Below, in pieces: positions 22,266 through 56,417 of a stretch of DNA of 64,000 bases. Each line of letters begins with the position of its first letter. The first letter of the stretch is position 1. The translations under genes were made by a program, and so were the position numbers. Origin of the DNA: Planctomycetaceae bacterium (GTDB taxonomy: Bacteria; Planctomycetota; Planctomycetia; Planctomycetales; Planctomycetaceae); NCBI GenBank assembly GCA_002726205.1, contig PBSL01000047.1:1-64000 (forward strand), written 5' to 3'. The notes under the pieces were generated by a model, which saw nothing but the letters and a program-made list of their open reading frames with translations, was not told the DNA's origin and searched no databases.

Positions 22266-22898
22266 ATGTTATCAAAGGCCCGGATCATGTCGCTTGCCAT
22301 TCAATCTCGCCGCCCGTTGTTCACCCCGGTCGCTTGCCTGGTGATATTCTTGGTCGGCCTGTGTACTCCGTCCGTCGAGGCCGACGAACTGGCGGTTGTC
22401 GGACCGGCCGAGGGGATTCTCTACACGAAACTCGGAACCCAAACGCATCGCACGATGTTTCTGCTGGAGGGCGGATTCACCGGCCTCGCACAGCAACTCG
22501 AGGAGGATGACTTCTACAAGGCGATTGTCGGTCGCGTGAAGCGGACCGACACGACGTTGTTGGTCAAGAACGTGTCGAAAAAGAAGATCATCAAGTCGAT
22601 CCTCAAGCAATCCAAGAGAGTTCGGAAGGACCACAAGGATTTCTACACCAAGCAGGACACGAAGAACCTCGAAGCCTTTCTCGAGTCAGTCGAATTGGCC
22701 AAGGAGTACTTCCACGGCACGCGATTCGTCGTCGAGAGCGGCAAGGGGGATCGCAAGCCGGCCTACATCGTCTACGGGGCGGATGGAAAGATGGTCAGCC
22801 GCAGCGAGGTGACCGACGCCAAGCATATCGAGTCGATCAGGAAGTTCCTGAATTACCAGGAACACTGGTTCGATCACTATGAAAGAGGCCGACGCTAG
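22266..22898 (+). CDS. Secreted lysine-rich hypothetical protein
   Basis: The 210-residue protein has a signal peptide (FTPVACLVIFLVGLCTPSVEA). The mature part is rich in Lys, Glu and Asp, with a very basic middle (NVSKKKIIKSILKQSKRVRK) and no cysteine. I do not recognise the family. A second in-frame ATG at 22287 is an alternative start. It is divergent from the sulfatase and 82 nt upstream of the SASA-sulfatase fusion, so it may share their glycan context. Confidence is in the gene, not in any function. Confidence 0.72.
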   Translation: MLSKARIMSLAIQSRRPLFTPVACLVIFLVGLCTPSVEADELAVVGPAEGILYTKLGTQTHRTMFLLEGGFTGLAQQLEEDDFYKAIVGRVKRTDTTLLVKNVSKKKIIKSILKQSKRVRKDHKDFYTKQDTKNLEAFLESVELAKEYFHGTRFVVESGKGDRKPAYIVYGADGKMVSRSEVTDAKHIESIRKFLNYQEHWFDHYERGRR

Positions 22899-22980
22899 GC
22901 CGAGGCGACGACGTCCATCGGGTCCGGGGGGCCGGGAGGGGACGGTTCACGTTTCCAGGGCAGCTCATTCGGAGTCCACG

Positions 22981-24234
22981 ATGACGAGTCGATGTCCCGG
23001 CAGCCCCGGTTGTTTCGGGTCCGCTTTTCCGGCCCTGGTTTTCTGGCTGCTCCTGACCTTGCCGGCAGCCGCCATGGCCTGGGGTGAGGGCGACCTTCCG
23101 TCGAAGGAGAACTTCCATCTTTACCTGCTGGTGGGCCAGTCGAACATGGCGGGTCGTGGACGCGTGGCCGCCACCGACAGGAAACCGATTCCCGGGGTGC
23201 TGGCCTTTTCCAGGGATCAGCGGTGGGTGCCCGCCGTTGACCCGCTGCATTTCGACAAGCCCTCGATCGTCGGTGTCGGCGTGGGGCGTTCGTTTGCCGC
23301 GGTGGTCCTGGCCGCCACGCCCAAGGCGACAATCGGGTTGATCCCGTGTGCAGTGGGCGGGTCACCGATCGCCAGCTGGGAGCCGGGTGGTTTTCACGCC
23401 TCGACCAAGACACATCCGTGGGACGATGCGATCAAGCGGGCCCGGGCGGCGTTGAAGCACGGAACGCTGAAAGGCATTCTCTGGCACCAGGGAGAATCGG
23501 ACTCCAATCCGAAACTCGCCGCAGTCTACAAGAAGAAACTCCACGCGCTGGTCACCCGCTTCCGCAAGGACCTCAAGGCTCCCGTCGTGCCATTCCTGGC
23601 CGGCCAGATGGGTCGCTGGCCCGAGCGACCCTGGAGCGAGGCGAAGATCCGCGTCGACGCGGTCCATCGGCGATTATCGAGTGACGTGAAACACACCGCC
23701 TTTGTGTCGGCCCGGGGGCTGGCCCACAAGGGAGACAAGGTCCACTTCGATTCCGCGTCGTACCGCGTGCTGGGACGACGGTACGCGAAGGCCTACCTGG
23801 AGCTGGTGGGATTGCCTGGAAAACGCGGTGCGGGGAAATCCGTCCGTCCCAACGTGATCCTGGTCATGGCCGATGATGTCGGCTACGAGTGTTTCGGCTG
23901 CTACGGCAGCCGGCAGTACAAGACGCCGCACATCGACCGGCTGGCACGCCGTGGCATGATGTTTCGTTACTGCTATTCGCAGCCACTGTGCACGCCGAGC
24001 CAGGTCAAGTTGATGACCGGGTTGTCGAACGCGCCACGGAGATTCGTTCGCGACACCCGGTTCAAGCTCTACGGAGATGGCCGTTTCCTGGACGTGGCTG
24101 CCGACGTTCCCGCGCCACATCCGATCACCGATCCGTCGGCGGATTCCGAGGCCGCCGCGGCACATTCCCGCCTGGCCCGGGCCCTGGCGTCGATGCCGGG
24201 CAAGGGGCGTTCGCTGCGGAAGTTTGCCCCCTGA
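22981..24234 (+). CDS. SASA-type esterase fused to an internally deleted sulfatase
   Basis: The protein has 417 residues from the ATG at 22981; the frame is open to 22879 but the leader is SAFPALVFWLLLTLPAAAMA. The first 280 residues are an SGNH/SASA carbohydrate esterase (LLVGQSNMAGRGR, GGSPIASWEPGG, ILWHQGESD, DKVHFDSASYRVLGRRY). At residue 289 a sulfatase begins (RPNVILVMADDVGYE, then LCTPSQVKLMTG). After about 64 residues it jumps near nt 24031-24039 straight to a sulfatase C-terminus (RFVRDTRFKLYGDGRFLDVA). The central 300 or so residues of a normal sulfatase are missing and CxPSR reads CTPSQ. The esterase should work; the sulfatase part should not. Confidence 0.85.
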   Translation: MTSRCPGSPGCFGSAFPALVFWLLLTLPAAAMAWGEGDLPSKENFHLYLLVGQSNMAGRGRVAATDRKPIPGVLAFSRDQRWVPAVDPLHFDKPSIVGVGVGRSFAAVVLAATPKATIGLIPCAVGGSPIASWEPGGFHASTKTHPWDDAIKRARAALKHGTLKGILWHQGESDSNPKLAAVYKKKLHALVTRFRKDLKAPVVPFLAGQMGRWPERPWSEAKIRVDAVHRRLSSDVKHTAFVSARGLAHKGDKVHFDSASYRVLGRRYAKAYLELVGLPGKRGAGKSVRPNVILVMADDVGYECFGCYGSRQYKTPHIDRLARRGMMFRYCYSQPLCTPSQVKLMTGLSNAPRRFVRDTRFKLYGDGRFLDVAADVPAPHPITDPSADSEAAAAHSRLARALASMPGKGRSLRKFAP

Positions 24235-24331: not shown

Positions 24332-25117
24332 ATGCGTGGTTCCCTGTTTCGTATTTTTCTCGCGGTTCCCCTGCTGGCGTCGCTGGGCTTTGCCGGCGAG
24401 AAATCTCCCGAGGGGAAATGGATCCAGTTGTTCAACGGCAAGGATCTCTCCGGGTGGAAGGTCAAGATCAAGGGGCACGACCTTGGTGAAAACTTTGGTA
24501 ACACCTTTCGCGTGGAAGACGGCGTGATGAAGGTCGGTTACGACAAGTACACCAAGTTCGGCGCGAAGTTCGGCCACGTGTTCTACGAGAAGCCGTTCTC
24601 GCATTACATCATCCGCTGCGAGTACCGGTTCCTGGGCAAGCAGGTCCCCGGGGGGCCGGGCTGGGCCTTCCGCAACAGCGGCATCATGCTGCACTGCCAG
24701 TCGCCTCAGTCGATGGGCAAGAACCAGAACTTCCCGGTTTCGATCGAGGTCCAATTGCTTGGTGGCCGCGATCAGGGCAAACGGCCCACCGCCAATCTCT
24801 GCACGCCCGGCACACACGTTGTTTTCAAGGGCAAGCTGCTCAAGCGACACTGCACCAACTCGTCCTCGAAGACCTACCGGGGTGACCAGTGGGTCAAGGT
24901 CGAAGTCGAGGTCCATGGCAACAAGGCGATCCGGCACAAGATCGACGGCCAGACGGTGATCGAGTACACCAAACCCCAGCTGGACGAGAACGACAAGGAC
25001 GCCCAGAAGTTGCTCAAGGGGCAACCCAAGCTGCTTGACGGCGGGTACATCTCGTTACAGTCCGAGAGTCACCCGGTCGAGTTCCGCAAGGTCGAACTGT
25101 TGCCGTTGAAGCCATGA
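24332..25117 (+). CDS. Secreted DUF1080 (3-keto-disaccharide hydrolase) protein
   Basis: The protein has 261 residues from the ATG at 24332, chosen over 24305 because GGAGA lies 10 nt upstream and the signal peptide (LFRIFLAVPLLASLGFAG) then starts at residue 4. WIQLFNGKDLSGWKV, the RNSGIMLHC segment and YISLQSESHPVEFRKVEL are the DUF1080 hallmarks. Family members fold like concanavalin-type lectins, and several hydrolyse 3-keto-glycosides. It is the first gene of a five-gene unit; its last four bases overlap the next start (ATGA). Confidence 0.9.
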   Translation: MRGSLFRIFLAVPLLASLGFAGEKSPEGKWIQLFNGKDLSGWKVKIKGHDLGENFGNTFRVEDGVMKVGYDKYTKFGAKFGHVFYEKPFSHYIIRCEYRFLGKQVPGGPGWAFRNSGIMLHCQSPQSMGKNQNFPVSIEVQLLGGRDQGKRPTANLCTPGTHVVFKGKLLKRHCTNSSSKTYRGDQWVKVEVEVHGNKAIRHKIDGQTVIEYTKPQLDENDKDAQKLLKGQPKLLDGGYISLQSESHPVEFRKVELLPLKP

Positions 25118-26055
25118 ACGGGATCGATCGACGCAGCTGTCTGGGACGTCTGGCGGCCGGCGGATTGGCAGCCGCCGGCGTGACGGCGGTCGCTCCCGAA
25201 CCGGTCGAGGCCGCCGGGGAACCGGCCATCGAAATCGTCAACGGGGCCGAGCACGCCTGGGTGATCAACGACAAGACGTTTCCGATCAACCCGAAGATCT
25301 CCAACTGCCCCAACAGCGAGCCGAATCGCAATTACTCGATGGCACATTTGCTGGCCGAGATGAAGGTACACGGCATTGCCCGGACCGTCATCAGTCACGT
25401 CTGTTATTACGGCACCGACAACTCGTATTCGAGTCATTGCGTGAAGACGCATCCGGACAAGCTTGCGGCGATCGGCTTGCTGGTCGGCCACCGGTTGCAC
25501 CGCCCCGGTGATCCCGAGAATCCTGGAAGACTCGAACGGCTGATGAAGCGGGACGCGCTGGTGGGACTGCGGTTGAGTCCGATCTACGACCGTGATCGGG
25601 TCTGGATGAATGACCCGGTCAGCTATCCGCTGTGGAAGAAGGCCGAGCAACTCGGAGCCGTCTTCAACATCTTCCTGGCCCCGCACCAGATCGGCCAGGT
25701 TGCCGACATGGCCCGGCGATTCCCCGGCGTCAAGATCGTGATCGACCACTTCGCGATGATCGACATCACCAGGCCCGACAGCGAGGGCATCGACCAGATT
25801 CTGGCTCTTGAAAAACTGCCCAACGTCTACATCCGCACGTCGCTGCACAATCCCTCGCAGCAGAAAATCCCGTTCCGTGACATGTGGCCGTACCTGCGGA
25901 AGGTCTACGACACCTTTGGTCCGCGACGGATGATCTATGCGAATTTCTACGAGCTGCTGATCATGAAGGACCTGGTGCCGTTCTTTTCCGCCGAGGACAA
26001 GCGATGGATCCTGGGAAAGACGGCCCGGTCGGTGTACCGGTTCGGCAAGAAGTGA
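25114..26055 (+). CDS. Amidohydrolase-2-like TIM-barrel protein with altered metal site
   Basis: The 313-residue protein has a Tat-type leader (GIDRRSCLGRLAAGGLAAAG). The overall pattern (VGLRLSPIYD, MARRFPGVKIVIDHFAMID, YIRTSLHN) is that of amidohydrolase-2 family metal-dependent hydrolases. The expected HxH on the first strand reads EHAW, and the late GSD-W motif is replaced by YANFYEL, so several canonical metal ligands look lost. It may be a degenerate or differently built enzyme, or a binding protein. The start overlaps the preceding DUF1080 stop by 4 nt, which indicates tight co-translation. Confidence 0.85.
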   Translation: MNGIDRRSCLGRLAAGGLAAAGVTAVAPEPVEAAGEPAIEIVNGAEHAWVINDKTFPINPKISNCPNSEPNRNYSMAHLLAEMKVHGIARTVISHVCYYGTDNSYSSHCVKTHPDKLAAIGLLVGHRLHRPGDPENPGRLERLMKRDALVGLRLSPIYDRDRVWMNDPVSYPLWKKAEQLGAVFNIFLAPHQIGQVADMARRFPGVKIVIDHFAMIDITRPDSEGIDQILALEKLPNVYIRTSLHNPSQQKIPFRDMWPYLRKVYDTFGPRRMIYANFYELLIMKDLVPFFSAEDKRWILGKTARSVYRFGKK

Positions 26056-26084: not shown

Positions 26085-26795
26085 ATGAGAACGCTGGTGC
26101 TGTGGATGGCGATGGGCCTGCCGATTCCAGGCGCCGTCCTGGCGGCTGACGGGTTCGAGCCGATCTTCGACGGGAAGACATTGAAGGGCTGGAACGTGAT
26201 TCCGAAGGCGAAGCAGGGTCACTGGTCGGTTCGCGATGGTCTGCTGGTCGGCAAGACCGACGGCAAGGGGTCGGATCTGATCTTTCACGATAAGAACCTG
26301 GGTGACTACGAGTTGAAGCTCGGCTACCGCTTTCGCACCAAGGGGAACTCGGGTATCCACATCCGTGGCCTGCTGGGCATCTCGAAGACACACAAGGTCA
26401 GCGGCTACCACGCCGACTTTGGCCATGTCGGCATCGGACCGGAGGTGCTGGGTTCGTGGGACTTTCACGGTTACCCTCGTGGTTCGTACCTGGTCAAGCG
26501 TGGTCACCGCGTGGTGATCGCCGCTGATGGAAACAAGACAGTGACGAGCCTCAAGCAGGCGCTCGAGGCCCGCCACGTCAGGCGACGTGGCTGGAACGAT
26601 GTCCACGTGGTCGTGAAGGGCTTCCGGATGTTCTTCAAGATCAACGGGCGAGTGGCTTCGGAGGTCGTCGACAATCAGGCGTCGAAGCGGATTGCCCGCG
26701 GTATCATCGGCCTGCAACTGCACGGAGGGCCACCGATGGAGATCGAGTTTCGTGATGTCCGGTTGAAACGGTTGAAGCAGGTTTCCAACCGATGA
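26085..26795 (+). CDS. Secreted DUF1080 protein, second copy
   Basis: The protein has 236 residues from the ATG at 26085, with GAGGAG 6 nt upstream. The frame is open back to 25884 inside the previous gene and that part was rejected. The signal peptide is MAMGLPIPGAVLAADG. FEPIFDGKTLKGWNV, TKGNSGIHIRGL and GIIGLQLHGGPPMEIEFRDV are classical DUF1080 blocks. It is only distantly similar to the copy 970 nt upstream, so the pair probably differ in substrate. The stop overlaps the start of the flavoprotein gene by 4 nt. Confidence 0.92.
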   Translation: MRTLVLWMAMGLPIPGAVLAADGFEPIFDGKTLKGWNVIPKAKQGHWSVRDGLLVGKTDGKGSDLIFHDKNLGDYELKLGYRFRTKGNSGIHIRGLLGISKTHKVSGYHADFGHVGIGPEVLGSWDFHGYPRGSYLVKRGHRVVIAADGNKTVTSLKQALEARHVRRRGWNDVHVVVKGFRMFFKINGRVASEVVDNQASKRIARGIIGLQLHGGPPMEIEFRDVRLKRLKQVSNR

Positions 26796-28564
26796 AGTCC
26801 CGACAAGATCCTGTCGTTGTCCTGTTGGTTGCCGTCTTGTTGCTGGTGATCGGGGTTGGCCTGTTCCGCGGTGTCGGCAACGAGGTCACTCCGGAAAAGG
26901 TCGGGCCGCGTGTCGTTGTCGTCGGTGCCGGGCTCTCGGGGCTCTCGGCCGCCCTGGAGCTGGCCGAAGGCGGAGCCGAAGTCACGGTCGTCGACATGTC
27001 GAGCGTCTATGGCGGTCACGCGGTGATGTCGCAGGGCGGGTTGTCGATCATCGGGACACCCGTGCAGGAGGCCGAGGGGTTGCAGGACACGCCGGAGCTG
27101 GCCTTCAAGGACTTCATCGAGTGGGGCGAGGGGGCCGATCGCGAGTGGGTCAGGTATTACGTCGATCACTCGCGGACGGAGATCCACGACTGGTTGATCG
27201 ACCTCGGCGTCGAGTTCACCGGTGTCGAATCGTCACCGGGGAACTCCGTCAAGCGGTTTCACCAGCCGGCCGGCCGTGGCATCGGGCTGGTGACACCCGT
27301 CTACCGCGCGTGCCTGGAACGAGACAACGTGGAATTTGTCTGGAATACCCGGGCCGATTCGTTGTTGATCGAAGATCAACGCGTCATTGGTGTGAGGGTC
27401 ACCGAACTTCGTGAGGGGGGGGCCCGGAGACTGGAGGCTGACGCGGTGGTCCTGGCGACGGGGGGATTCCAGAGCAACCTGGCCATGGTTCGGGAATTCT
27501 GGCCGTCCGAGTTCAAGTTCCCCGGCAAGATCCTTGCCGGCTCGGGCCGCCATTCGGTCGGGCTCGGGCACCGTATGGCCGAGCGGGTCGGAGGTGACCT
27601 GGTCAAGATGGACTACCAGTGGAACTACTATTCCGGCCTGCCCGACCCGCAGAATCCCGGCAGCAACAAGGGACTCAACGCCGCGAACATGTGGGGCATT
27701 CTGGTCAACTGGCAGGGCCGACGGTTCGCCAACGACCATGGCTGGGCCAAGGATGTGATGCCCGCCCTGCTTTCGCAGGAACAGGTCACCTGCTGGACGA
27801 TCTTCGACGAGGCGACGAAGAAGGAATTTAGTGTCTCGGGTTCAGACTGGGCCGACGCCGAGAAGGTCGACCGGTTGGTACTGCAGAATCCCGAACTGGT
27901 CAAGCAGGCCGACACGATCGAGGAACTGGCCAGGCTCTCGGGGCTGCCGTCGCGAAACCTGGTCGAGACGGTTGCTCGCTACAACGCGATGATCGAGCGG
28001 GGCGTGGATGAGGACTTCGGGCGGTTCGGGCCGGGCAAGAGCGAGTTCAACAACAAGGCGTCGGTGAAGATCCAGACGCCACCCTACTACGCGATGAAGA
28101 CCTACCCGCTGACACGCAAGAGCATGGGCGGTGTGGCGATTGATCTGAAGTGCCGTGTGGTCGACAAGCGGAAACGACCGATTCCCGGGCTGTTTGCCGT
28201 CGGGGAACTGACCGGGCTGGCGTTGATCAACGGCAAGGCGGCGTTGGAAGGGACCTTCCTGGGACCCTGTGTCGTGACCGGCAGGGTGGCTGCCAGATCG
28301 ATTCTGGCGGCCAGCGGCTGGAAGCGGTCCGCCGGGCTGGTTGCAGAACAGCGTTGCATCGACTGCCACGACGTGGCCGAGGAGATCGTCGAATCGCGGC
28401 CGGGTTTCTGGCATTTCGAACGCGTGCACTCAAAGGTGCTCGAGCAGAAGATCGACTGCCGCCAGTGTCACGGCGAATTGTCGCCGTACCGCGAGGACGA
28501 CCACCGGATCAACCCGCGGGTGTTGACGGCTGCCTGCATGAGGTGCCACACCGGGCGCGAATAG
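26792..28564 (+). CDS. Membrane-anchored FAD flavoprotein with three C-terminal haem-c motifs
   Basis: The 590-residue protein is anchored by one N-terminal helix (VVVLLVAVLLLVIGVGLF). A Rossmann FAD site follows (RVVVVGAGLSGLSAALELA), with fumarate-reductase/ketosteroid-dehydrogenase-type blocks (GGHAVMSQGGLSIIGT, SMGGVAIDLKCRVVD, RPIPGLFAVGELTGLALING). The last 75 residues carry three CxxCH motifs (CIDCH at 522, CRQCH at 556, CMRCH at 582). Haem-c attachment means the domain is outside the cytoplasm. Known relatives such as Shewanella flavocytochrome c carry haems at the N-terminus; here they are at the C-terminus. It probably passes electrons between a substrate and the respiratory chain. 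It overlaps the upstream DUF1080 by 4 nt. Confidence 0.9.
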   Translation: MKSRQDPVVVLLVAVLLLVIGVGLFRGVGNEVTPEKVGPRVVVVGAGLSGLSAALELAEGGAEVTVVDMSSVYGGHAVMSQGGLSIIGTPVQEAEGLQDTPELAFKDFIEWGEGADREWVRYYVDHSRTEIHDWLIDLGVEFTGVESSPGNSVKRFHQPAGRGIGLVTPVYRACLERDNVEFVWNTRADSLLIEDQRVIGVRVTELREGGARRLEADAVVLATGGFQSNLAMVREFWPSEFKFPGKILAGSGRHSVGLGHRMAERVGGDLVKMDYQWNYYSGLPDPQNPGSNKGLNAANMWGILVNWQGRRFANDHGWAKDVMPALLSQEQVTCWTIFDEATKKEFSVSGSDWADAEKVDRLVLQNPELVKQADTIEELARLSGLPSRNLVETVARYNAMIERGVDEDFGRFGPGKSEFNNKASVKIQTPPYYAMKTYPLTRKSMGGVAIDLKCRVVDKRKRPIPGLFAVGELTGLALINGKAALEGTFLGPCVVTGRVAARSILAASGWKRSAGLVAEQRCIDCHDVAEEIVESRPGFWHFERVHSKVLEQKIDCRQCHGELSPYREDDHRINPRVLTAACMRCHTGRE

Positions 28565-28620
28565 TCGACCGCGGGCGCCTTGACGGCAATCGGCTGGTTC
28601 GGACCAGGAGAGAGGACATC

Positions 28621-30201
28621 GTGAACAGCAACGTGCCCAGGCGGGAGGCGGATCGCTACCTGTCGGAACCGAACATCTCGGTGATTACGCGAATCGCAAA
28701 AGTGATCGAGATGTTGATCGGCCTGAGAAAGCAGGACTTCCAGGCAGCCGGCCACTTTGTCCAACTGCAGTGGGGACACCTGCCGTGGCCGGTCCGCTGG
28801 GCCAGGTTTCTTGGCTGGGGAATTTATCAGTTGTTCATCAACTTGCCCCAGAGGACTTGTGGCCTGGTCATCCGCGGTCGGATTTCGCGGACCCCGATGT
28901 GGCTGCTGGACGAGAATCGCTGGGCCGAGCATCCCTGGCGGGATGACGGAGCGGCCCGCCTGCCCGGCGAAGTCGACACGGTGGTGATCGGGGCCGGATT
29001 CACCGGCGGCGCGGTCGCCTACCACTGGGCCCGCCGGGCCTCGAGCGATCAGTCCCTGGTCGTGCTCGAGATGGATGATCCCGCCAGCGGAGCCTCGGGC
29101 CGCAACGAGGGGCTGGTCGTGATGGGACGTTATTTCAAGATGGTCCGTGACACCGTCGGTCACCATCTGCCCCGGGTGCGACCGGACCTGGAGAGTTCCG
29201 CCCGCAAGCAACTGGCCAGCCAGTTCGCGATGGCCTATTGCCGGGCGGCTTACCGCAATGCCGACCTGATTGCCGAGACGATCGAGGAACACGGATTCCG
29301 TTGTGATTACCAGCGAGCCGGTTGGGTGCAGGCCCGGACCAGCGATGAACAGAAGGCGTTGAGGCTGTCGGTGAAACTGGCCGAGCAGTCCGGCTGTGAC
29401 GACTGGACGATGATCGAGTCCTTCGAGGTCAAGCAACGGTCGGGGATGCGGGTCACCCAGCCGGCGGGTTTTTCGAGACAGGCCGCCAGCTGGCACCCGG
29501 CCAAGTGGGTCTGGTGCCTGCTCGACGTGGCCCTGGCGTCGGACAACGTCGAGCTGTACACGCGGACACGCGTCGACCGGGTCCTCGAGCAGCAGAGGGG
29601 ATACCTCGTCGAGACGGCTCGCGGCGTGATCCGGGCTCGCAACGTCGTTTATGCCACCGAGTCCTACACACCGAATCTCGAGACCGGTTTTCGGGACGTG
29701 ATCCTGCCGATGCAGGAACAGGCCGCTTCGGGCGAGGGAGGGCCCGTGTCGATGGAACCTCATATCGGCATCAGTGGCTCCTGGTACTTCGCCGGTCGGT
29801 ACGGCCGCGACGTGCTGTTCGGTTCGGGAGGATCGCGGGTGCCAGATCACCAGGCGGGACGCAATCTTCCTTCGCGGTTCCTGACACGGTTCGCTGCCGC
29901 CGAAATGCGAGACCACTTCGGTCCCTACGAGCTGGAACTGGAGAACGAGTGGAGTGGGACGGTCGGCTACACGCCCGACGAGTTTCCAGTCGTCGGGTCG
30001 ATCGATGGTGCGGGTCGCTGGATCATCGGGGGCATGTGCGGATCGGGAAGCGGCGTGGCGTTCAACGGGGGTCGCTGCATCGTCAACCGGATTCTCGGCC
30101 TCGACGATGAACCCGACGATTACCCACCCGAGTATTTTGCACCCGGCCGTCTGCTTGACCCGGCCGGTCATTGCTGGCCGGACGTGAACCACGGCCGATG
30201 A
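28621..30201 (+). CDS. FAD-dependent oxidoreductase (DAO family) with N-terminal extension
   Basis: The protein has 526 residues from the GTG at 28621, preceded by AGGAGAGAGG; upstream open frame lies inside the flavoprotein gene in another phase and was rejected. The dinucleotide fold VDTVVIGAGFTGGAVAYHWA begins only near residue 120, after an unassigned region with many aromatics (LQWGHLPWPVRWARFLGWG). GASGRNEGLVVMG and the closing EWSGTVGYTPDEFPVVG / GMCGSGSGVAFNGG are DadA/glycine-oxidase-type blocks. No signal peptide is seen. It follows the haem flavoprotein by 56 nt and probably completes the operon. Confidence 0.9.
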   Translation: MNSNVPRREADRYLSEPNISVITRIAKVIEMLIGLRKQDFQAAGHFVQLQWGHLPWPVRWARFLGWGIYQLFINLPQRTCGLVIRGRISRTPMWLLDENRWAEHPWRDDGAARLPGEVDTVVIGAGFTGGAVAYHWARRASSDQSLVVLEMDDPASGASGRNEGLVVMGRYFKMVRDTVGHHLPRVRPDLESSARKQLASQFAMAYCRAAYRNADLIAETIEEHGFRCDYQRAGWVQARTSDEQKALRLSVKLAEQSGCDDWTMIESFEVKQRSGMRVTQPAGFSRQAASWHPAKWVWCLLDVALASDNVELYTRTRVDRVLEQQRGYLVETARGVIRARNVVYATESYTPNLETGFRDVILPMQEQAASGEGGPVSMEPHIGISGSWYFAGRYGRDVLFGSGGSRVPDHQAGRNLPSRFLTRFAAAEMRDHFGPYELELENEWSGTVGYTPDEFPVVGSIDGAGRWIIGGMCGSGSGVAFNGGRCIVNRILGLDDEPDDYPPEYFAPGRLLDPAGHCWPDVNHGR

Positions 30202-55145: not shown

Positions 55146-56417
55146 CTAGTGGTCGGTGACGGCTCCGTCCCCGAACCGCATCCGGGGCCGGTTGGCCGGC
55201 ACATAGGGCCGCTTGGCGGCGACCTTCTCGTCGAGCGTGACACCCAGGCCCGGCTTGCCCGGGATCAGCGCATAACCATCCTTGAACCGCGGCCCGTCAC
55301 CGCGGAACAGGTCCTGGAAGAACTGCGACGGCGGCCGGCTGATTTCCTGGATCGCGAAGTTCGGCGTGGTCACATCGACGTGCAGCGAGGCCAGCGTACT
55401 GACGCTACTTTGCGGATTGTGCGGGGCCGTCTGGATTCGGTAGGCCTCGGCGATCGTGGCAATCTTCTTCAGTTCGAGGATTCCACCGCAGTGAACCACG
55501 TCGGGTTGCACGTAATCCACCAGGTGCCGTGAACAGATCGGTGCAAAGCCGTACTTGGTGAACAGCCGCTCGCCGGTCGCCAGCGGGACCCGCGTCTTGT
55601 TTCTCAGATGTGCCAGTTCGTCGACATCTTCGATCTGCGTGGCCTCCTCGACGAAGTAGGGGGAGTACTGCTCGGCGCGGGCGCAGAATTCCACGGCCAT
55701 CGGCGGCGTGGGAAATCCGTGCAGGTCGATCAGGATCCGGAAGTCCGGTCCCACGGCTTCGCGAACTGCCTTCAACCGGGCAATCGCATCGCGGACGTCC
55801 CTGGAAGGATCGACGACCAGGCCGCGTGGCCTGAGGAATCCGCCCTTGGCGGCGACCCAGCCGTCGGCCTTGGCCTGGGCCCAGTTCTTCGCGTAATCCT
55901 CGGGTGTTGTTCCGCCGGCGTGCACATACATCTGCATCTTGTGCCGGGCACGGCCGCCGAGGAGTTTCCAGACCGGCAGGCCAACCGACTGCCCGAGAAT
56001 GTCCCAGAGGGCGATTTCGACGGCGCTGATGGCCGAGTTGAGGATCGGGCCGCCTCGCCATCGCGGCCAGCGATACATCGCCTGCCAGTGCATTTCGATG
56101 TCGGTGGGGTCCTGTCCAACCAGGTAGCGGCGGTGCTCCAGGATCGCCTGCTCGACGGTCCGGGCCTTGCTGGTGATCGAGCCCTCGCCCAATCCGACCA
56201 GCCCGCGGTTGGTCACAACCTTCACGAAAACGTAGTTCTTGCCACCGGCATTGACGACGATCGTCTTCAGGTCGGTGACCTTCAGTTTCGCCTTGCGGGC
56301 TTCTTCGCGGGCGAGGGCGAACCGGCTGCCGGGGCCGGACAACAGGCCCAGGCCACCGGCCGCGGCGGTGGCGGCGGAAACAAGAAAATCACGGCGGTCC
56401 AACTGGCGAATTGACAC
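55146..56417 (-). CDS. Galactonate-dehydratase-like enolase-superfamily enzyme with Tat leader
   Basis: The 423-residue protein starts at GTG 56417, with GGAAGGAG upstream. The Tat leader is LDRRDFLVSAATAAAGGLG. The enolase-superfamily barrel shows metal ligands in RILIDLHG, YFVEEATQ and PLATGERLFTKYGF, the DVVHCGGI strand and the acid/base His in IQTAPHNPQSS, close to DgoD-type D-galactonate dehydratases. An exported dehydratase is uncommon; the leader is clear. It is followed downstream, 150 nt away, by the Gfo/Idh/MocA gene on the same strand. Confidence 0.92.
   Translation of the reverse strand: MSIRQLDRRDFLVSAATAAAGGLGLLSGPGSRFALAREEARKAKLKVTDLKTIVVNAGGKNYVFVKVVTNRGLVGLGEGSITSKARTVEQAILEHRRYLVGQDPTDIEMHWQAMYRWPRWRGGPILNSAISAVEIALWDILGQSVGLPVWKLLGGRARHKMQMYVHAGGTTPEDYAKNWAQAKADGWVAAKGGFLRPRGLVVDPSRDVRDAIARLKAVREAVGPDFRILIDLHGFPTPPMAVEFCARAEQYSPYFVEEATQIEDVDELAHLRNKTRVPLATGERLFTKYGFAPICSRHLVDYVQPDVVHCGGILELKKIATIAEAYRIQTAPHNPQSSVSTLASLHVDVTTPNFAIQEISRPPSQFFQDLFRGDGPRFKDGYALIPGKPGLGVTLDEKVAAKRPYVPANRPRMRFGDGAVTDH

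What the first reader, a model, noticed from the sequence alone, without database searches (positions are those of the whole stretch)
25114..26055. Amidohydrolase-fold protein that appears to have lost its metal ligands
The first-strand HxH reads EHAW and the late GSD-W block is replaced by YANFYEL, although the fold-level motifs (KIVIDHFAMID) and the Tat leader remain. It is co-translated with a DUF1080 gene. It may be a pseudo-enzyme or a lectin-like partner in the operon.
Basis: partly seen in the sequence, partly recalled or inferred. Interest (0 to 1): 0.5.

Follow-up and report, generated by a model that had tools for sequence, protein, structure and literature searches.

The report
Amidohydrolase relative lacking usual metal ligands
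A bacterial protein with the fold of metal-using hydrolases has lost the usual metal-holding residues, but so has a whole, tightly conserved group of relatives in several phyla, so it looks more like a re-tooled sugar-pathway enzyme than a dead or decaying one.

Summary
Window 25114-26055 (+) is an Amidohydro_2 barrel whose HxH reads A45-E46-H47 and whose strand-8 Asp is gone (RMIYANFYE); it has a Tat-like leader and overlaps an upstream DUF1080 gene by ATGA. It is neither unique nor decaying: 38 of 38 distinct full-length relatives compared (four phyla, one clade, 100/100 support) share these changes, and dN/dS is about 0.1. E46, C65, C97, N246 and N277 are fixed in 38 of 38, H245 in 36; H47, R153, S155, Y158, D211 and H212 are kept. 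The sister clade already has Gly for the strand-8 Asp; solved homologues 4mup and 6uvz have Asn. Nearest folds are LigI-type COG3618 proteins, some metal-free (recalled), some solved with Zn. Some neighbourhoods point to acid-sugar or lactone catabolism (enolase-superfamily genes near 7 of 40 loci; a single-copy flavocytochrome c shared with a sister-clade operon); no partner is fixed. Best reading: a metal-independent sugar-lactone or sugar-acid enzyme with a rebuilt active site (0.5). Activity and substrate are unproven; a pseudo-enzyme or a relocated metal site is not excluded. DUF1080 is near only 3 of 40 loci, so 'lectin-like partner' has little support.

The parts
25114..26055 (+). Amidohydrolase-2 barrel protein, 313 aa, Tat-like leader, no canonical first His or strand-8 Asp
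25246..25254 (+). A45-E46-H47, in place of HxH on strand 1 (first His lost, E46 new, second His kept)
   Evidence: E46 and H47 in 38 of 38; non-His at 45 in 38 of 38 as printed
25306..25308 (+). C65, loop after strand 1
   Evidence: 38 of 38 subfamily rows, not in the sister rows' three commonest letters
25402..25404 (+). C97, after strand 2
   Evidence: 38 of 38; sister rows Ile or Arg
25570..25572 (+). R153, strand 4, kept pocket arginine
   Evidence: 38 of 38 and 25 of 25 sister rows
25744..25749 (+). D211-H212, strand 6, kept
   Evidence: 38 of 38 and 25 of 25 sister rows
25846..25851 (+). H245-N246, after strand 7
   Evidence: H245 36 of 38, N246 38 of 38
25942..25953 (+). N277-F-Y-E280, in place of the strand-8 Asp and following loop; N277 subfamily-specific, E280 shared with the sister clade
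   Evidence: N277 38 of 38, sister rows Thr; E280 invariant in all 29 rows of A1
24332..25117 (+). DUF1080 / 3-keto-disaccharide hydrolase family gene, ATGA overlap with the barrel gene
   Evidence: PF06439 134.9 bits; overlap also in L047, L048
26085..26795 (+). second DUF1080 gene
   Evidence: PF06439 101.3 bits
26792..28564 (+). flavocytochrome c-like gene: FAD_binding_2 plus three CXXCH motifs at the end
   Evidence: one copy in each of 7 of 10 genomes searched
28150..30201 (+). next ORF, conserved in L047, L048 and L050; FAD-dependent oxidoreductase by eye (not searched); true start probably near 28.6 kb by comparison with L047
22879..24234 (+). SASA esterase plus truncated sulfatase domain, same strand upstream

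Best explanation
The gene encodes an exported member of a distinct, uncharacterised subfamily close to the LigI-type (COG3618) branch of amidohydrolase-2 barrels. Shown: the first His of HxH and the strand-8 Asp are gone, a new set of residues is fixed across phyla, R153, S155, Y158, D211 and H212 are kept, the fold is intact in the model and purifying selection is strong. Inferred: it is an active enzyme working without the usual metal. It would bind an acidic sugar or sugar lactone at the C-terminal mouth of the barrel (R153, S155, Y158, N185) and use E46/H47, H212 and H245/N277 for acid-base catalysis of lactone opening or isomerisation or a related sugar-acid step. In the window operon it would act in the periplasm beside two DUF1080 proteins and a flavocytochrome c, on an oxidised sugar.
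For: Altered residues in 38 of 38 relatives, one clade at 100/100. dN/dS 0.09-0.10 against 0.11-0.18 for three operon mates. AlphaFold model pLDDT 89.0, pTM 0.84; best PDB matches 4i6k, 2ffi, 4dlf, 4do7, LigI 4d8l, Z 25.9-27.8. Strand-8 Asp replaced by Gly in 25 of 25 sister rows and by Asn in 4mup and 6uvz. Enolase-superfamily (MR_MLE) genes within 3 kb, same strand, at 7 of 40 subfamily and 2 of 11 sister loci; SGL plus ABC permeases at 2 of 11 sister loci; single cases of HpcH/HpaI aldolase (L068), Ldh_2 (L054), alpha-L-fucosidase (L124). The single-copy flavocytochrome c beside the window gene is beside a sister-clade barrel and an MR_MLE gene in L078.
Against: No activity known. Two of the four closest structural matches (4dlf, 4do7) were solved with Zn. 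NCBIfam lactonase models score far below cut-off (34.1 of 500, 11.8 of 400). No fixed genomic partner; the window operon has no MR_MLE or aldolase gene next to it. Six of the seven MR_MLE loci are one clade, and those genomes are rich in MR_MLE genes (66-110 each), so about 0.1 per 7 kb is expected. The MR_MLE and aldolase neighbours reach no NCBIfam cut-off. The flavocytochrome has no such barrel beside it in three other genomes. Conservation of catalytic-face against opposite-face loops was inconclusive (38 of 99 against 6 of 24, entropy p=0.78).
Confidence: 0.5

Rival explanations
1. Pseudo-enzyme or binding protein: catalysis was lost and the conserved barrel mouth only binds a sugar or a partner.
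For: Both canonical positions are gone in 38 of 38; genomic partners vary; the conservation-by-face test gave no support for an active site.
Against: Many polar residues at the mouth are fixed over four phyla, including kept R153, D211 and H212; homologues with a changed strand-8 residue exist; some members sit in tight operons with metabolic enzymes.
Confidence: 0.25
2. Metal or thiol enzyme with relocated ligands: H47, H212, H245, E46 and the fixed C65 and C97 form a new centre.
For: C65 and C97 are in 38 of 38 and lie in loops after strands 1 and 2; H47 and H212 in 38 of 38, H245 in 36. The closest folds include Zn-bound 4dlf and 4do7.
Against: No coordinates were available to measure distances; H245 is Gly in two members. 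The two Cys could be structural.
Confidence: 0.15
3. Decaying gene, frameshift or assembly error.
For: The neighbouring SASA-sulfatase gene lacks most of its sulfatase domain relative to L047.
Against: Open frame, dN/dS about 0.1, the same residues in 38 of 38 relatives.
Confidence: 0.02

Closest known systems
LigI, 2-pyrone-4,6-dicarboxylate lactonase (PDB 4d8l, 4di8, 4dia)
   Same: Same barrel, Z 25.9, rmsd 2.7 over 254 residues; strand-6 His kept; metal-independent by recall
   Different: LigI keeps the D248 block (WGTDWP) and DAHCHV on strand 1; the window protein has neither; 17% identity
Atu3138 (PDB 4mup), by recall galactarolactone isomerase
   Same: Same barrel (Z 24.2); no strand-8 Asp (WGTNWP); by recall an active enzyme; a sister-clade barrel in L078 sits by an MR_MLE gene whose best PDB match is 4ggb
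   Different: Asn rather than loss of the loop; 14% identity; its strand-1 motif was not seen here; the window operon has no such MR_MLE gene beside it
6uvz, Amidohydrolase 2 of Bifidobacterium longum subsp. infantis
   Same: Best single-sequence PDB hit (E 4.3e-06); strand-8 Asp is Asn (YSSNWP)
   Different: Keeps HxH (IDSHFHIW); its function was not verified (recalled as a fucose-pathway protein)
Sister clade of planctomycete barrels (for example L017, L028, L019)
   Same: 33-40% identical; share R153, Y158, W164, N185, D211, H212 in 25 of 25 and Asp loss
   Different: Keep the first His; strand-8 loop present as GTGFPG/GTGYPR; 10 of 25 have HxE

Membership tests
Amidohydro_2 (PF04909) | profile score over the curated cut-off | tested here: met
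   106.7 bits against 26.4
Metal-dependent amidohydrolase superfamily enzymes | HxH on strand 1 and Asp on strand 8 | tested here: not met
   A45-E46-H47 and no Asp, in 38 of 38 relatives
Metal-dependent amidohydrolase superfamily enzymes | bound divalent metal | not testable with these tools
   needs protein; relocated ligands not excluded
LigI-type / COG3618 fold group | closest fold among solved structures | tested here: met
   4i6k, 2ffi, 4dlf, 4do7, 4d8l at Z 25.9-27.8; a shared fold shows no function
LigI-type lactonase | strand-8 Asp (D248 of LigI, general base by recall) | tested here: not met
4-sulfomuconolactone hydrolase / L-fucono-1,5-lactonase (NCBIfam equivalogs) | score over the curated cut-off | tested here: not met
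   34.1 of 500 and 11.8 of 400 bits
Galactarolactone isomerase (4mup-like) | strand-8 Asp absent | tested here: met
   Asn in 4mup, loop lost in the window protein
Galactarolactone isomerase (4mup-like) | lactone isomerisation | not testable with these tools
   no assay; orthology not shown
Pseudo-enzyme | no catalytic turnover | not testable with these tools
   needs assay

The most novel reading that the evidence does not exclude
A subfamily of the amidohydrolase superfamily found in four phyla has swapped the ancestral HxH...Asp machinery for a new fixed set (E46, H47, C65, C97, H212, N246, N277, nearly always H245) and still catalyses a sugar-lactone or sugar-acid reaction, exported in some members and leaderless in others: a rebuilt active site on an old barrel, next to a sister clade that had already lost the Asp.
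Probability: 0.35. Interest if true: 0.6.

Novelty: new variant of a known kind. Interest (0 to 1): 0.43.

Why it matters
Annotation calls such proteins 'amidohydrolase family protein', and a reader looking for ligands calls them dead. If active, they are a stepwise case of catalytic-residue turnover on one barrel and a missing step in sugar degradation by planctomycetes and other mostly uncultured bacteria. If they are binding proteins, they are an unusually conserved pseudo-enzyme family across phyla. Either way the AEHAW / [AGT]N motifs separate them from true metal hydrolases.

Tried and rejected
Lectin-like partner of DUF1080 as a general role: rejected; DUF1080 is within 3 kb of 3 of 40 subfamily loci, plus L050 by gene order alone. 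Decay: rejected. A fixed operon partner: none found. E280 as a new compensating carboxylate: dropped on re-reading, because it is also invariant in the sister rows. Sugar ABC transporter beside L078: wrong; it is a phosphate-type cluster (BPD_transp_1, ABC_tran, PhoU, response regulator). ABC genes beside L108 and its cluster-mates are ABC-transporter ATPase proteins and gave no clue. Conservation by barrel face: inconclusive. The flavocytochrome beside a barrel in every lineage: no, absent in L133, L134 and L135.

Literature: searches listed no paper that I recognised as being about this subfamily; I saw listings with the starts of abstracts, and passages only of PMC6353982, PMC12076931 and PMC9007349. 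The library lacks most subscription papers. Plasmid relatives: 77 records, every best place under 60% identity; ten rows were shown.

Rows dropped: four hits with masked bases (L089, L114, L016, L050) and duplicates, 129 hits to 74 rows; groups are score bins that I set (over 350, 150-350, under 150 bits to profile A2). Two of the 74 rows were too short for the tree, 72 used. L064, L119 and L041 were left out of the 25-row sister set. Of the 41 loci, L128 was left out as a copy of L060; the 40 include the cut L064 and the partly masked L114, and several contigs are too short to hold 3 kb on both sides. The sister set of 11 loci was my choice among more hits. Gene calls are a simple ORF picker of my own; starts are unverified.

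Full report
What is there. The ORF 25114-26055 (+) encodes 313 aa and matches one Pfam family, Amidohydro_2 (106.7 bits). Its start overlaps the stop of a DUF1080 gene by ATGA, also in two relatives. A second DUF1080 gene (26085-26795) and a flavocytochrome c-like gene (26792-28564) follow. The first motif is VNGAEHAW: the first His of HxH is Ala, the second is kept. The last motif is RMIYANFYE: no Asp, and the loop after strand 8 is gone.

It is a family trait. A scan of the named genome collection with the window protein gave 21 loci: 16 with a full gene, one masked inside (L050), one cut by a contig end (L064) and three short fragments. Whole-genome searches found close orthologues in 4 of 170 genomes of its family including its own, 17 of 64 in the phylum of a Latescibacteria genome, 9 of 349 in one class of Acidobacteriota and 1 of 84 in the phylum of the Poribacteria genome. 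A 392-genome sample of its own phylum gave one more besides the window genome (G228; two other matches there are sister-clade proteins). Some records labelled Gemmatimonad fall in the Latescibacteria search group, so I count four phyla. After removing duplicates and four masked hits, 38 distinct full-length members remain: 38 of 38 lack the first His and the strand-8 Asp, and 38 of 38 have E46 and H47. They form one clade with 100/100 support on a long stem, beside a clade of 25 rows (96/93), 24 from the window's family and one from another family of its class. The tree tool warns of long branches among distant rows, including where L128 meets the rest, and its root is a midpoint for drawing only.

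Not decay. dN/dS among the window, L047 and L048 is 0.09-0.10; three operon mates give 0.11-0.18 (division values). dS is near one, so these are rough.

What changed and what stayed. Kept in 38 of 38 and in 25 of 25 sister rows: W49, R153, Y158, W164, D211, H212; S155 in 38 and 24, N185 in 37 and 25. Subfamily-specific: E46, C65, C97, T242, N246 and N277 in 38 of 38, H245 in 36 of 38. E280 is in 38 of 38 as printed but is also invariant in the sister rows, so it is not a new ligand. The sister clade has Gly for the strand-8 Asp in 25 of 25 and HxE for HxH in 10 of 25. So the Asp may have been lost first and the first His later (inference). The Asp is not universal elsewhere: of five other family members of this genome read, two have Asp (L001, L002), two Asn (L003, L006), one Gly (L005), and solved homologues 4mup and 6uvz have Asn. 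A test of whether catalytic-face loops are more conserved than opposite-face loops was inconclusive: 38 of 99 against 6 of 24 near-invariant, entropy p=0.78.

Fold. The AlphaFold model has mean pLDDT 89.0 and pTM 0.84. The best matches are 4i6k, 2ffi, 4dlf, 4do7 and LigI 4d8l, Z 25.9-27.8, rmsd 2.3-2.7, with 4mup at Z 24.2, rmsd 3.3 (Foldseek also puts these chains on top). 4dlf and 4do7 were solved with Zn, which tells against calling the whole branch metal-free. That LigI works without metal, that its D248 is the general base, and that Atu3138 (4mup) is the galactarolactone isomerase, are recalled; those papers are not held. That Gli precedes Gci in the pathway was read in passages of PMC6353982.

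Neighbours. No partner is fixed. MR_MLE enolase-superfamily genes stand within 3 kb, on the same strand, at 7 of 40 subfamily loci. Six of the seven are one clade, the seventh (L116) lies elsewhere in the tree. The seven genomes carry 66-110 such genes, so about 0.1 per 7 kb is expected by chance (my arithmetic); the link is suggestive, not proof. None of the MR_MLE neighbours tested reaches an NCBIfam cut-off. Single cases: HpcH/HpaI aldolase in L068, Ldh_2 in L054, DHDPS on the opposite strand in L049 (another in L114), alpha-L-fucosidase in L124. Sulfatases lie within 3 kb of 8 of 40. In the sister clade, MR_MLE stands at 2 of 11 loci and SGL plus ABC permeases at 2 of 11. The strongest link: the flavocytochrome c of the window operon is present once in each of 7 of 10 genomes searched; it adjoins the subfamily gene in the window, L047 and L048, and its 65% identical counterpart in L078 directly follows a sister-clade barrel and an MR_MLE gene whose best PDB match is 4ggb (by recall a galactarolactone cycloisomerase). 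Against this, in the three other genomes with the flavocytochrome no such barrel is beside it. DUF1080 stands near 3 of 40. Passages of PMC9007349 name one characterised DUF1080 protein as a 3-ketotrehalose hydrolase, another as an endo-xanthanase/lichenase, and propose a periplasmic 3'-ketolactose hydrolase.

How it most likely works. Shown: lost canonical residues, fixed new residues, kept pocket arginine and strand-6 His, LigI-like fold, purifying selection. Inferred: an active, metal-independent step on an oxidised sugar, lactone or sugar acid, with acid-base work by E46/H47, H212 and H245/N277; periplasmic in the window operon (Tat-like leader), cytoplasmic in leaderless members such as L058, L059 and L061-L063 (sequences, starts unverified).

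Verdict. Observation confirmed; interpretation partly supported. It is an uncharacterised variant within a known superfamily as far as the searches show.

Noticed in passing
window 22879-24234 (+): The SASA-sulfatase fusion lacks about 280 residues of the sulfatase domain present in L047 (685 aa), in frame: a deletion or an assembly error.
   Followed up: partly
L065 4438-4629, L066 4095-4286, L067 9932-10123: Three Bryobacterales loci carry only a 63-aa piece matching the last about 50 residues of the subfamily (MIYANFYEL...), between a beta-helix gene and, as called in L065, a GFO/IDH/MocA gene: remnants of the barrel gene or something else.
   Followed up: partly
window 55224-55889 (-): An enolase-superfamily (MR_MLE_C) gene lies in the same window about 29 kb away.
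   Followed up: no
L003, L005, L006 (other contigs of the window's genome): Other Amidohydro_2 paralogues of this genome also lack the strand-8 Asp (GSNFP, GGGFN, GSNYP).
   Followed up: no
L061, L062, L063 upstream of the barrel gene: A 625-aa protein (no Pfam match for the L062 copy; beta-propeller-like by eye) ends across the start of the barrel gene in all three.
   Followed up: partly
window 26792-28564 (+): The flavocytochrome c-like protein ends in three CXXCH motifs, also in the L078 counterpart; its substrate is unknown.
   Followed up: partly
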